In this document: positions 2,854 to 30,189 of the stretch, piece after piece | Numbering within the stretch: position 1 is the first letter of the stretch | Layout: each line of letters opens with the position of its first letter | Origin: a virus | Direction: 5' to 3' (one strand) | DNA length: 30,189 nucleotides | Virus record (IMG/VR): IMGVR_UViG_3300028829_005869 | Coordinates: 1-30,189 of that record | Translations under genes and position numbers: made by a program | The notes under the pieces: model-generated | What the model was told of the DNA's origin: nothing | Seen by the model: the letters and a program-made list of their open reading frames with translations, nothing else | Database searches by the model: none

Positions 2854-2861
2854 TATAAATA
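2854..2861 (+). promoter_or_regulatory. Possible T4-type late promoter box TATAAATA
   Basis: An exact match to the T4 late -10 box, 38 bp before the ATG at 2900, in the divergent gap between the FmdB-like gene and the plus-strand head genes. Late genes for packaged proteins would be expected to use such a box. An 8-base AT-only motif occurs by chance in a genome like this, so the support is its position. Confidence 0.5.
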
Positions 2862-2899: not shown

Positions 2900-4522
2900 A
2901 TGAAATCATTTAGTCAATTTTTAACAGAAGCAAGAAAAAACCCAGAAAAGAACGTCAAAGAATTTCCAGTGAAGTCATTAGAGAAGTATAAAGATGATGA
3001 TGATGTCTTTATTACTTTTATTGCGAATGCAAAAGATTTCACAGAAACAGGCAAAGATGATTATTTGGCGGCTCAAGTTGGTTTGAATACCAAGTCAAAG
3101 TACAACACACCAAATGGCATCTATACATATCCAATGGTTGAAGTCTATCAACAATATGTTGGAAACTATACAGGGCAACATGATTTTTTTGACAAGCATA
3201 AAGGTCTAAAAAGATTCAATGTTCCCTTTGCTGGTGACCAGCCAAAAATTGGCGTGCTTCGACGTGTTGGTAAAAATCATATTGATGATATTGGTTCTGG
3301 TGAATATTCGCATGCAAAACTTGCGGGTGATACTGAAAAAATTGTCAAGTATACAACTCAAAAACTCATGAAAATTTTGAATGTAAAGAATGAATATCTA
3401 ATGTTTTTGATTGTATGTGCCACATGTCAATACGCTTTCACTCGAGCAGCAAAAGACACACCAGGAATGCAATTCTGGAACGCAACTCGATTATGTGCTG
3501 CTCTCATTGCATTAGCCCATGAGAAAAAGAAACTTACTGGTGATGTTCGATCATCAAAGACAACTGCTCAAAGAAGTTTTCGACTTGGTGAAACCATGCC
3601 AAAAATGTCAGCCTGGTGGCTTCTTGGAAATCGAAAAGACCTTGAAGAGAATTATGATCCAGACAAACCAAGAAAAATTCCACCAAAACTATTAACTAAA
3701 GTATATGATACTGTTCAAAAAATGAAAGGCGATAATAAGGCTTTGACCGCGGCAAATATTTTCAATCCATCTGGTGAAAAGAAAGAACAGGGTAAATCAA
3801 ATCCATATGCGAATGCCTGGGCAGTTTTATTGATTCGAATTGGATATAATTCAATTGCGGATCGAAGTGGTAAGAGAGTGATTCACTCCGCTGAACCAAC
3901 TCAAGCAGTTTTCTTGGCAAGAAGAGGATACAAAGTTCTTGAAATTATTGAGAATAAAACATATGAAGATCGTAAACCAATTCTTCAACAATATAGTGAA
4001 CTCAAAACGGATGAGAAAAGAGCCGACTTTCTTCAGAGAATGGAAAACAATGGTATTGTTCAAGGACAAGAAAATGTTCGACTATGGCGTTTTTTTGAAA
4101 CATTAAAATCAAATAGTATTGTAGTGAATTCGGATGTTCTCGAAATCTTAGTCAAGAAAGAACCACATACAGCGGCAGAATTTCATCGCACAGGACATTC
4201 AGTTCAAGTGATCAATGACCTGATGAAAATTGGTCTCAAAGAAAAAGCCAGTACTCTAACTGTTTATGTAGCAAGAGGACCTGAGTGTAAAATTAAACCA
4301 GAAACAATTGTCTTTGGTCTCAAAGAACTTCTTCGTCAGAAAAAGGATGCGAATCCTAAAAGTATGGATTCACCACTGCTTGATATTCGTCAGTCACTGA
4401 GAATGTATGAAAACAAATGGAACAAACAAACTGAGGATGTGATTCAAGCGTTCCGCAAGGCCAAAGAAAAAGCTCAGGCGGATGCTACAGAATATCTCAA
4501 ATCAGAAAAGAAGGCATCATGA
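2900..4522 (+). CDS. Probable internal head protein, 540 aa, with capsid-targeting-like N-terminus
   Basis: The N-terminus MKSFSQFLTEARK closely resembles the capsid-targeting peptide of T4 internal proteins (MKTYQEFIAEA), which the head protease cleaves after Glu. This suggests packaging in the head and injection with the DNA. The rest is not firmly recognised. Two segments are striking: near residue 60 GLNTKSKYNTPNGIYTYPM, and near residues 312-345 a GYNSIADRSGK stretch followed by VIHSAEPTQAVFL. From memory, a GIYxYP segment plus a Gly-Tyr-Asx-x-Ile-x-Asp...EPxQ segment recalls ADP-ribosyltransferase-like domains of phage polyvalent proteins; this is weak. T4 also packages an ADP-ribosyltransferase (Alt). 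The C-terminus is Lys-rich and helical. Its stop overlaps the next start (ATGA), so the two are coupled. It is one of only three plus-strand genes here. Confidence 0.7.
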   Translation: MKSFSQFLTEARKNPEKNVKEFPVKSLEKYKDDDDVFITFIANAKDFTETGKDDYLAAQVGLNTKSKYNTPNGIYTYPMVEVYQQYVGNYTGQHDFFDKHKGLKRFNVPFAGDQPKIGVLRRVGKNHIDDIGSGEYSHAKLAGDTEKIVKYTTQKLMKILNVKNEYLMFLIVCATCQYAFTRAAKDTPGMQFWNATRLCAALIALAHEKKKLTGDVRSSKTTAQRSFRLGETMPKMSAWWLLGNRKDLEENYDPDKPRKIPPKLLTKVYDTVQKMKGDNKALTAANIFNPSGEKKEQGKSNPYANAWAVLLIRIGYNSIADRSGKRVIHSAEPTQAVFLARRGYKVLEIIENKTYEDRKPILQQYSELKTDEKRADFLQRMENNGIVQGQENVRLWRFFETLKSNSIVVNSDVLEILVKKEPHTAAEFHRTGHSVQVINDLMKIGLKEKASTLTVYVARGPECKIKPETIVFGLKELLRQKKDANPKSMDSPLLDIRQSLRMYENKWNKQTEDVIQAFRKAKEKAQADATEYLKSEKKAS

Positions 4523-4749
4523 AAACTTTCTCAGACTTTTATTCTGATATTCAGAATATGAAAACACCTGCTGGTGAAGCTTCTGAGCCTTCAGAGGGGC
4601 AAATTGAAGAGAAGTGGTCGGACAAGAGAAAACGAACGATAGATTGTGACCGCCCTCGTGGCTTCAGCGAACGTGCCTCATGCCAAGGTAGAGAAAAGCG
4701 AAAACGAGAACGTGAACAACGAAGACGAAGATTTGCGAGGTTATATTGA
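4519..4749 (+). CDS. Small Arg-rich protein with capsid-targeting-like N-terminus
   Basis: 76 aa. MKTFSDFYSDI again resembles the T4 capsid-targeting peptide. A middle segment, DCDRPRGFSERASCQGR (residues 43-59), has two cysteines in a pattern I associate with head-related proteins of T4-like phages. The tail is extremely basic (KRKREREQRRRRFARLY), as expected for a DNA-contacting internal protein. The start overlaps the stop of the 540-aa gene (ATGA), and its own stop overlaps the TTG start of the homing endonuclease. Packaging is inferred from the N-terminus; no enzymatic role is suggested. Confidence 0.75.
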   Translation: MKTFSDFYSDIQNMKTPAGEASEPSEGQIEEKWSDKRKRTIDCDRPRGFSERASCQGREKRKREREQRRRRFARLY

Positions 4750-5453
4750 CACCATACACTTATATTATTGAATGTAAACCAATTAGTAAAAAATATTATG
4801 GAGTAAGATATGCGAAAGGCTGTAAACCAGATGACCTTTGGAAAACATATTTTACCTCATCAAAAATTGTTCGAAACTTAATTGAAACATATGGCAAAGA
4901 ATCTTTTGAGATTCAGATCGATAAAGAATTTGAGACAGTCGAAGAAGCGATTGACTACGAACATCAATTTATAATTACTAACAATCTTTCTAGCAATCCT
5001 AATTGGCTAAACGTACATCGCAGAAAAGCTATCGATTTCAATGATCCTGTTATTAGTGAAAAGTTATCAATAGCACGAAAAGGACGAGTAACTTCAGAAG
5101 AAACAAAAAAGAAGCTAAGTGCGATAGGTAAGGGTAAGAAATTATCAGAAGAAACAAAAAGAAAGATTAGTGAGAGTAGTAAAGGTAAAACAATATCTCA
5201 AGAATCTATCGATAAAGCTAGAGAATCAAAAAAGAAGAGTGGTAAAAATCAAGGTGAAAGTCACTGGACTTATGGCAAGCAGAGAGATGAAGAGACAAGA
5301 AGAAAGATTAGTGAGGCGCTAAAGGGGAAGTCTTACAATGTTGGGTATAAACACGAAAAGAGAGTGTGCCCTCATTGTAATTTAGAGGGCGCTGGAGGAA
5401 ACATGACAAGGTTTCATTTTGATAATTGTAAAAAACGTCAGTCTGGTAAGTAG
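4746..5453 (+). CDS. Free-standing GIY-YIG homing endonuclease with NUMOD3 repeats
   Basis: 235 aa, apparently intact. The N-terminal GIY-YIG nuclease domain has YTYII (4-8) and YYGVRYAKG (17-25) with the probable catalytic Arg21, plus EAIDYEH with candidate metal-binding Glu72. DNA-binding NUMOD3 repeats follow (SEETKKKLS, SEETKRKIS, DEETRRKIS; roughly 106-195). A C-terminal zinc finger has Cys208, Cys211, His224 and Cys228. This is the architecture of T4 Seg-type mobile endonucleases, which cut phage DNA lacking the gene and so spread it. The start is TTG at 4746, supported by GAGG five bases upstream and a TTGA overlap with the preceding stop. Its 3' end overlaps the convergent DUF6433-like gene by 16 bp. 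The cleavage site cannot be told. Confidence 0.88.
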   Translation: MTPYTYIIECKPISKKYYGVRYAKGCKPDDLWKTYFTSSKIVRNLIETYGKESFEIQIDKEFETVEEAIDYEHQFIITNNLSSNPNWLNVHRRKAIDFNDPVISEKLSIARKGRVTSEETKKKLSAIGKGKKLSEETKRKISESSKGKTISQESIDKARESKKKSGKNQGESHWTYGKQRDEETRRKISEALKGKSYNVGYKHEKRVCPHCNLEGAGGNMTRFHFDNCKKRQSGK

Positions 5454-29259: not shown

Positions 29260-29287
29260 ATTATATCACCTCTGAGGAAAATGTCAA
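29260..29287 (-). promoter_or_regulatory. Sigma-70 promoter abutting the gp46 start codon
   Basis: Minus strand TTGACA (29287-29282), 16 bp spacer, extended -10 TGATATAAT (TATAAT at 29265-29260), which touches the gp46 ATG. The TGA of TTGACA is the guaC stop codon. Transcripts would begin inside gp46, so it would serve the following genes (amidoligase, def) rather than gp46. Confidence 0.65.
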
Positions 29288-29955
29288 GAGAAAATTTCAT
29301 TATATTGATTTGATACTCGAATCATTGTAGCACACTTTGGTAAATTTTTCAAGTTTTGAGCGCCAATATATGTGCAAGCACTTCGCAATCCACCCAGTAA
29401 TTCTTGAATTGTATTCGCAATTGGACCACGATAGGGCACCAGCACCTCACGACCTTCAGCGGCACGATAGTTTTTCAGACCACCAAAGTGAATGTCATTG
29501 GCTTTCTTGCTGCTCATGCCGTAGAACTCAACAAACTTCTTTGTCTCACGAACTAATTCATACTGAGGATAATCTTCAGAGGTGTATTCAATTTCGTTTG
29601 TGACATAATGTTTTTCAATCACTTGACCACCACCTTCATCATGACCAGCAAACATACCACCAAGCATCACGAAATCGGCACCACCCGCAAATGCTTTGGC
29701 TACATCACCAGGGCACGTACAACCGCCGTCAGCGATGATTAAACCACCAAGACCATGTGCAGCATCTGCACATTCAATTACGGCACTTAATTGAGGATAT
29801 CCTACACCTGTCTGAATGCGAGTTGTACATGCACTATTATGAACTACAACACCATCAATATTATAAGAATGGTCGTCTTCAACTTCTAAATCGTATGTCA
29901 AACCATTATAATCTTCAGTTTCTATTTTTTCAATCTCTACTAGCTGATATTTCAT
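29284..29955 (-). CDS. guaC: Split-intein C half fused to GMP reductase C-terminal part
   Basis: 223 aa. Residues 1-40 are a C-terminal split intein ending VVVHN, followed by Ser41 as the +1 residue. From there the protein is the C-terminal part of GMP reductase: SACTTR with the catalytic Cys43, [20 protein letters not shown], a DGGC segment, [23 protein letters not shown] and YRAAEG (near residue 163) with the catalytic Glu, and it ends like E. coli GuaC. IMP dehydrogenase is ruled out by these GuaC-type blocks. After protein splicing with the N-half it should reduce GMP to IMP, using NADPH, in purine salvage. The ATG at 29955 has GGAG eight bases upstream; the TTG before it is less likely. 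The N-terminal half and Int-N lie beyond the window. The stop TGA lies in the next promoter's -35. Confidence 0.93.
29836..29955 (-). other. C-terminal split intein (Int-C), 40 residues
   Basis: Residues 1-40 of the GMP reductase fragment. Block F is [15 protein letters not shown] (21-35) and block G is VVVHN with the terminal His39-Asn40, followed by Ser41. Asn cyclisation and a Ser +1 nucleophile are expected. The length, the start [13 protein letters not shown] and the insertion before the catalytic-Cys loop closely match the published IMPDH-1 split intein from marine metagenomes (recalled from memory). Confidence 0.92.
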
Positions 29956-30189
29956 CAATCTTACTCCAATTATTATTTTTTATATCATTTTCCCAAATTA
30001 CAAAATATTTGTAACCATTATCAATTGCTAATTTTTCTTTTTCAATATCTCTAATTCTTTTATATTCCTGTCTCCCATTTAATGTTGAATAAAATACAGG
30101 ATTTCCATGCCAATAATCCCCATGAACCTCAAGAATTATGTTATCATTTATCAAAAAATCATACTGTGCTTTACCATTTAATATAAAAT
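29930..30189 (-). CDS. Vsr-like endonuclease fragment, 5' end outside window
   Basis: The frame is open to the right edge and its last 85 residues are visible. [20 protein letters not shown] followed by WHGNP and a C-terminal [13 protein letters not shown] match the core of very-short-patch-repair (Vsr) and related PD-(D/E)XK-type nucleases: the Asp of YDF, Glu of LEVHGD, the following His and the W-x-x-D-I ending. Such genes lie between the two halves of genes broken by split inteins in phage-like metagenomic contigs and are thought to act as homing endonucleases. The stop overlaps the Int-C start by 26 bp. The TTG at 30154 is not the true start, since the motif continues upstream of it. Confidence 0.85.

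What the first reader, a model, noticed from the sequence alone, without database searches (positions are those of the whole stretch)
2900..4749. Two adjacent plus-strand genes with T4-like capsid-targeting N-termini
MKSFSQFLTEA and MKTFSDFYSDI resemble the MKTYQEFIAEA targeting peptide of T4 internal proteins. Two coupled genes sharing this, on the opposite strand to all others and behind a late-type box, look like cargo for injection into the host. T4 internal proteins include anti-restriction factors, so these may be host-takeover or anti-defence proteins.
Basis: partly seen in the sequence, partly recalled or inferred. Interest (0 to 1): 0.65.

Follow-up and report, generated by a model that had tools for sequence, protein, structure and literature searches.

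The report
Capsid-tagged ADP-ribosyltransferase-like phage cargo
A T4-like aquatic phage carries two linked late genes whose proteins begin with a short address tag of the kind that loads proteins into the T4 head; the larger has a predicted ADP-ribosyltransferase fold, so it is probably a host-modifying cargo injected with the DNA, like T4's Alt.

Summary
ORF1 (2900-4522, 540 aa, MKSFSQFLTEA) and ORF2 (4519-4749, 76 aa, MKTFSDFYSDI) lie on the + strand behind TATAAATA, in a T4-like phage fragment. T4-pattern N-termini occur 3 times in the window against 0.07 expected; the third is an amidoligase-like gene. Relatives of ORF1 in uncultivated phages sit in strings of co-directional genes with the same leader, on kinases, a CCA-adding enzyme, cytidylyltransferases and a DnaJ. 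Leaders co-vary within each phage between unrelated neighbours (permutation p 5e-5; controls null). A cyanophage cytidylyltransferase with this leader (MKKFSAFLNEA, T4-GC190) was found in virions by published mass spectrometry. ORF1 fits all positions of the T4 capsid-targeting sequence; ORF2 has Asp10, which in T4 allows targeting but blocks cleavage. ORF1 matches no Pfam or PHROG family; a model of a minimal homologue (pLDDT 88) matches ART-PolyVal proteins, the cyanophage A4 pre-ejectosome and, weakly, PARP/RES/diphtheria-toxin folds. Best reading: ORF1 is a head-packaged ART-like effector comparable to T4 Alt; ORF2 a small basic internal protein with a homing endonuclease inserted in its 3' end. 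Packaging in this phage, enzymatic activity and any anti-defence role are unproven.

The parts
2854..2861 (+). TATAAATA, T4-type late promoter -10 box
   Evidence: same place in L003 and 46-53 nt upstream in L021; the same box precedes gp22 and gp23 in relative L060
2900..4522 (+). ORF1, 540 aa, pI 9.5; leader plus ART-like domain plus helical C-terminal region
2900..2932 (+). ORF1 leader MKSFSQFLTE^A: F4, F7, L8, E10, A11
   Evidence: T4 rules from PMC9026906
2957..3973 (+). ORF1 conserved domain (aa ~20-358), predicted ADP-ribosyltransferase fold
3974..4522 (+). ORF1 C-terminal helical region (aa 359-540), not conserved in distant relatives
4519..4749 (+). ORF2, 76 aa, pI 9.9; leader MKTFSDFYSD plus a CDRPRGFSERASCQGR motif shared with Kyanoviridae proteins
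4519..4551 (+). ORF2 leader: F4, F7, Y8, D10; resembles T4 IPI (MKTFKEFTS...)
4746..5453 (+). GIY-YIG/NUMOD3 homing endonuclease; the inserted DNA runs from about 4701 to 5437 inside the 3' end of ORF2
   Evidence: absent from L003
3..1178 (-). Amidoligase-like gene with leader MLGFNSYFVED (MKAFHEFLLEG in L005, MLPFKSFLTEG in L021), cut by the window end

Best explanation
ORF1 and ORF2 are late genes for proteins loaded into the phage head by a T4-type N-terminal capsid-targeting sequence. ORF1 is bound to the prohead core through residues 1-10, cut after Glu10 (LTE^A) by the phage's gp21-type protease, packaged with the DNA and ejected into the host. Its body is a divergent ADP-ribosyltransferase-fold domain that most likely modifies a host macromolecule at the start of infection, as T4 Alt does. 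ORF2 is a small basic internal protein targeted by the same signal, probably retained uncut or cut later (only IxE site at residue 31). Shown: leader, statistics, late-type box, family, predicted fold. Inferred: targeting, cleavage, ejection, enzymatic activity.
For: Leader enrichment 3 vs 0.07. All T4 determinants met in ORF1 (positions 4, 7 target; 8, 10 process: PMC9026906). Strings of leader genes around ORF1 homologues. Leader co-variation between unrelated neighbours p 5e-5, controls at offset 30 and 40 not significant. The leader-bearing T4-GC190 cytidylyltransferase was detected in purified S-SM1 virions (PMC3037559); a cytidylyltransferase-like gene with a related leader sits beside the ORF1 homologue in L010. 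gp21-type protease and gp23 found together in all 4 of 18 relative contigs where either was found. TATAAATA. Fold: homologue model pLDDT 88 matches 9k3a_B E 5.9e-4, two ART-PolyVal-like phage proteins at E 5.6e-5 and 1.2e-4, and a run of ART-superfamily chains. Neighbours of homologues in L030 include ART-PolyVal (E 1.9e-25) and PARP (E 5e-9) domains.
Against: No virion data for this phage; the window and its nearest relatives are fragments without the head genes, so its protease and capsid were not seen. Fold evidence comes mainly from a predicted model of a distant homologue (35% identical to ORF1's domain); individual PARP/RES/DT matches are weak (Z 3.6-4.8). No Pfam ART family matches any of 27 members and a profile comparison with the L030 ART-PolyVal protein was not significant. 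The strand-1 position that aligns by eye with the catalytic His is Ser/Thr throughout the family. ORF2 lacks Glu10. Not every homologue has the T4 pattern (L009, L029, L030, L032, L036 have other leaders).
Confidence: 0.72

Rival explanations
1. The leader is a real head-targeting signal, but ORF1 is a structural or ejection-apparatus protein with a catalytically dead ART-like fold, not an enzyme acting in the host.
For: Best solved match is a pre-ejectosome protein of cyanophage A4. The position that fits the catalytic His is Ser/Thr in all members.
Against: Tyr75, His329, Glu332 and Gln335 are invariant or nearly so across very divergent members, which suggests a preserved active site; the family is patchy, with several copies in some phages, unlike a core structural protein; homologues neighbour bona fide ART-PolyVal and PARP-type proteins.
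Confidence: 0.2
2. The shared N-terminus is not a capsid address but some other shared N-terminal element, such as a translation-enhancing start region, a membrane or replisome anchor, or a chaperone-recognition tag.
For: Direct packaging was never measured for these proteins. Leaders differ between phages. Some leader genes (DnaJ, CCA-adding enzyme) look like cytoplasmic functions.
Against: The pattern fits the residues mapped by mutagenesis in T4; T4-GC190 with the same leader is in virions; the conservation is in amino acids while codons vary.
Confidence: 0.12
3. The similarity of the two N-termini is a chance or duplication artefact limited to this pair.
For: The motif is short, and only two genes are adjacent here.
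Against: ORF1 and ORF2 show no similarity beyond the leader; enrichment, co-variation and strings in relatives; ORF2's Kyanoviridae homologue Bellamy gp122 also starts MKSFKQFQES.
Confidence: 0.03

Closest known systems
T4 internal proteins IPI, IPII, IPIII (capsid-targeting sequence MKTYQEFIAEA / MKTFKEFTS)
   Same: Leader with aromatic residues at 4 and 7, hydrophobic 8 and Glu10 in ORF1; basic proteins; ORF2 is small and close to IPI in its first residues.
   Different: No similarity beyond the leader; ORF1 is a 540-aa protein with a predicted enzyme-type domain; ORF2 has Asp10.
T4 Alt (head-packaged, injected ADP-ribosyltransferase)
   Same: Predicted ART-type fold in a head-targeted protein of a T4-like phage.
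   Different: No detected sequence similarity (no Pfam match); Alt's N-terminus (MELITELFDED) is not the MKTF type, and Alt is acidic (pI 6.0) while ORF1 is basic.
ART-PolyVal domains of phage polyvalent proteins; cyanophage A4 pre-ejectosome protein (PDB 9k3a)
   Same: Nearest predicted or solved folds to the ORF1 domain; virion-associated or predicted to be injected (PMC9503650).
   Different: Those polyvalent domains are usually parts of large multidomain proteins; ORF1 is a stand-alone gene with a capsid address; no profile match to PF18760.
Cyanophage T4-GC190 cytidylyltransferase (S-SM1, Syn19)
   Same: Same leader (MKKFSAFLNEA) on an enzyme, in Kyanoviridae; detected in S-SM1 virions.
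   Different: Unrelated body.

Membership tests
T4 capsid-targeting sequence (CTS) | Aromatic residues at positions 4 and 7 (targeting) | tested here: met
   F4, F7 in ORF1 and in ORF2; rule from PMC9026906
T4 capsid-targeting sequence (CTS) | Processing determinants in ORF1: hydrophobic residue 8, Glu10, (L/I)xE cleavage | tested here: met
   L8, E10, LTE^A
T4 capsid-targeting sequence (CTS) | Processing determinants in ORF2: hydrophobic residue 8, Glu10 | tested here: not met
   Y8, D10; only (L/I)xE is IEE-31. In T4 Asp10 permits targeting but inhibits processing, so ORF2 may still be targeted
T4 capsid-targeting sequence (CTS) | gp21-type prohead protease encoded by the same phage | tested here: inconclusive
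   Window and nearest relatives are fragments; PF03420 and PF07068 both present in 4 of 18 relative contigs
T4 capsid-targeting sequence (CTS) | Protein present inside the virion | not testable with these tools
   Only indirect: leader-bearing T4-GC190 in S-SM1 virions
ADP-ribosyltransferase superfamily | ART fold | tested here: met
   Predicted model of homologue L032: ART-PolyVal-like and 9k3a matches significant, PARP/RES/DT matches weak but nearly exclusive. Window's own model aligns aa 26-357 to 9k3a at Z 6.6. Rests on prediction
ADP-ribosyltransferase superfamily | H-Y-E or R-S-E active-site triad | tested here: inconclusive
   By alignment: Y75 and E332 nearly invariant, but Ser/Thr at the His-like position 39; assignment by eye
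Known Pfam ART families (incl. ART-PolyVal PF18760, PARP PF00644) | Profile match | tested here: not met
   None of 27 members matches; hhalign with the L030 ART-PolyVal protein not significant
T4 internal protein families IPI-IPIII | Sequence homology outside the leader | tested here: not met
   No internal-protein PHROG match for ORF1 or ORF2; in L014 only residues 1-19 of one gene match the internal head protein family (E 0.013)

The most novel reading that the evidence does not exclude
Large T4-like and jumbo phages each use their own short, interchangeable N-terminal address tag, placed on whole strings of unrelated proteins (ARTs, kinases, nucleotidyltransferases, chaperones, metalloprotease-like proteins), to load a customised effector payload into the head. 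The tag changes between phage lineages (MKTFxxFLxEA, MINFKDFLLE, MLSYKEYLxE, MRKVVIA) but is common to the cargo within one, so the cargo can be read from sequence.
Probability: 0.5. Interest if true: 0.82.

Novelty: new variant of a known kind. Interest (0 to 1): 0.62.

Why it matters
Only a handful of packaged effectors are known, mostly from T4 itself. If the leader is a general address, the injected proteome of uncultivated T4-like phages can be predicted from genome sequence, which makes a new set of early host-takeover and counter-defence enzymes testable. The ORF1 family itself was not found in Pfam, in PHROGs, or (apart from one 735-kb uncultured phage) in the 50,697 phage records searched.

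Tried and rejected
Pfam and PHROGs on ORF1 and ORF2: nothing; on all 27 domain members: only scattered chance-level matches. tblastn of ORF1 and three homologues in phage records: only a 735-kb uncultured phage at E 3e-5. Bacterial genomes: none. PDB by sequence: none significant. The full-length ORF1 model against PDB gave only helical-repeat matches to the C-terminal half, so the minimal homologue was modelled instead. Profile comparison of the family with the L030 ART-PolyVal protein: not significant. A T7-exonuclease-like tblastn match of ORF1 (E 1-6) was rejected as chance. HTVC008M, a marine relative, has few leader genes and only weak enrichment, so strings are not universal. The anti-restriction idea: no evidence either way.

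Full report
Observation. ORF1 (2900-4522) and ORF2 (4519-4749) are open, start with ATG and overlap by four bases. A TATAAATA box ends 38 nt before the ORF1 start, is kept in L003 (85% identical ORF1) and, at a slightly larger distance, in L021 (about 40% identical), but is degenerate in L005. In the relative L060 the same box precedes gp22 and gp23. All other likely genes of the window run on the minus strand except a homing endonuclease directly behind ORF2.

More than chance. With the T4 pattern (aromatic at 4 and 7, E/D at 10) and internal positions of the same proteins as the null, the window has 3 N-terminal hits against 0.07 expected. The third is an amidoligase-like protein at the left end, minus strand, whose relatives carry clearer leaders (MKAFHEFLLEG, MLPFKSFLTEG). 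In about 160 ORFs of the two largest close contigs the strict N-terminal pattern is found only at this locus. T4 as positive control returns IPII and IPIII among five first-ATG hits.

Phage. The window is a 30-kb uncultivated virus record. Its clamp loader is nearest to S-CRM01 (46%), Methylophilales phage Melnitz (45%) and Pelagibacter phage HTVC008M (43%), so it is a T4-like phage near Kyanoviridae.

Relatives. Scans of IMG/VR gave three close relatives and, with alignments, some 25 further loci. A profile finds the family in all of them, with two or three copies in L028, L029, L030 and L031. The conserved part is ORF1 residues ~1-355. In several distant loci the ORF1 homologue sits in strings of co-directional genes with the same kind of leader: L014 (MKTFNEFLFEARRNP, MKTFEEFLNES, MKTYVEFITEA, MKSFNEYLNEM, MKTFKQYITEA), L010, L026, L028, L031. 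Cargo types by Pfam and PHROGs: P-loop kinase/zeta-toxin-like, cytidylyltransferase, CCA-adding enzyme, NT5C, DnaJ, HAD phosphatase. In L005 and L021 the gene after ORF1 differs (a 365-aa protein with cyanophage relatives; a HAD protein), but both carry a leader.

Leaders are phage-specific. Similarity between the ORF1-family leader and N-termini of its unrelated neighbours is higher within a locus than between loci (17 loci; permutation p 5e-5, the floor of the test), and the effect is gone at offsets 30 and 40 of the neighbours; a weak residual signal at offsets 14 and 20 may reflect start-codon uncertainty. In the 295-kb phage of L030 a different leader, MR[KH][IV][IV][IL]A, begins nine ORFs in two clusters, with no match of the reversed control pattern; one is an ART-PolyVal protein (E 1.9e-25), and neighbours include a PARP-type and an NAD-dependent ligase protein. 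No gp21-type protease was found in that genome, so that leader may work differently.

Function of the leader. In T4, residues 4 and 7 of the IPIII leader direct packaging, residues 8 and 10 govern cleavage, and Asp at 10 inhibits processing while still allowing targeting (PMC9026906). ORF1 has F4, F7, L8, E10, A11. ORF2 has F4, F7, Y8, D10, so by the same rule it would be packaged but not cut at residue 10; its only (L/I)xE site is IEE-31. Its start resembles T4 IPI, MKTFKEFTS. Published proteomics of cyanophage S-SM1 found the cytidylyltransferase T4-GC190 in purified virions (PMC3037559); its gene SSM1_190 starts MKKFSAFLNEAERSF, a perfect match to the pattern. This is the strongest outside support, though in another phage. 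All four relative contigs where a head module was seen have both the gp21-type protease and gp23.

Body of ORF1. No Pfam or PHROG match. The model of ORF1 has mean pLDDT 72; its N-terminal domain aligns, among the rows listed, only with the cyanophage A4 pre-ejectosome protein 9k3a (Z 6.6). The 223-aa minimal homologue in L032, whose gene lies a few kilobases from gp23 in its contig, was modelled at pLDDT 88, pTM 0.83. Foldseek: 9k3a E 5.9e-4, nothing else significant in the PDB. The second aligner puts 9k3a at Z 8.1 and then almost only ART-superfamily chains: MbcT, a diphtheria toxin homologue, an anti-CRISPR protein (6kyf; its ART nature is from my own knowledge), RES toxins, PARP1/2, tankyrase (Z 3.6-4.8). 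In viral predicted structures nine matches have E below 1e-3, two of them named ART-PolyVal-like. Each weak match alone would not count; their agreement does. By eye, strand 1 (VFITFI) takes the place of the ART LYHGT strand with Ser/Thr for His; Tyr75 and Glu332 would be the other triad members. Activity is therefore uncertain.

ORF2. Its body (CDRPRGFSERASCQGRKKR) matches segments of Kyanoviridae proteins (E down to 6e-9). Bellamy gp122 (51 aa, MKSFKQFQESWSNKYKKSIDCSNPKGFSQKAHCAGRKKR...) has both leader and motif; in other phages the motif is embedded in larger proteins. In L003 ORF2 ends ...CQGRKKRQSGK; in the window a GIY-YIG/NUMOD3 homing endonuclease gene is inserted there, giving ORF2 a new Arg-rich tail and the endonuclease the old ending KKRQSGK.

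Comparison with what is known. Head-packaged ARTs in myoviruses are an established theme (Alt; polyvalent proteins; PMC9503650), and T4 reviewers have suggested that the leader lets T4-like phages load varied proteins (PMC9026906). New here, as far as the searched library shows, are the ORF1 family, the enzyme strings with a shared leader in uncultivated phages, and the within-phage co-variation of the leader. I found no paper on capsid-targeting sequences in cyanophages or marine phages beyond T4 reviews, but most subscription papers were not searchable.

Verdict. Observation confirmed; capsid-cargo reading likely (about 0.85 for the leader being a head address); ART fold likely (about 0.8); ART activity open (about 0.5); anti-defence role untested.

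Noticed in passing
window 4701-5437: Homing endonuclease gene (GIY-YIG, NUMOD3, C-terminal zinc-finger-like end) inserted in the 3' end of ORF2; precise empty site in L003.
   Followed up: yes
window 29284-30187 (-): Intein-like end ([23 protein letters not shown]) in a GMP reductase/IMPDH-like gene, with an endonuclease-like piece at 29930-30187.
   Followed up: no
L015 2586-3671 (-) and L059 3636-4979 (+): Two related leader-type proteins; the L015 one has an HEWAH zincin-like motif, so a metalloprotease-like cargo is possible.
   Followed up: no
L030 3371-16792: Jumbo-phage stretch with NAD-dependent DNA ligase, ART-PolyVal, PARP-type and three ORF1-family proteins together, several with the MRKVVIA-type leader.
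   Followed up: partly
L005 7670-8767: 365-aa protein with leader MITNFKTFLLES, in the place of ORF2; its cyanophage relative Syn19_172 lacks the leader; the motif DIALVFDG...ISLKTKGGEQF looks nuclease-like by eye.
   Followed up: partly
L026 6404-14422: Leader on a DnaJ, a CCA-adding nucleotidyltransferase, an NT5C-like and a zeta-toxin-like kinase protein.
   Followed up: partly
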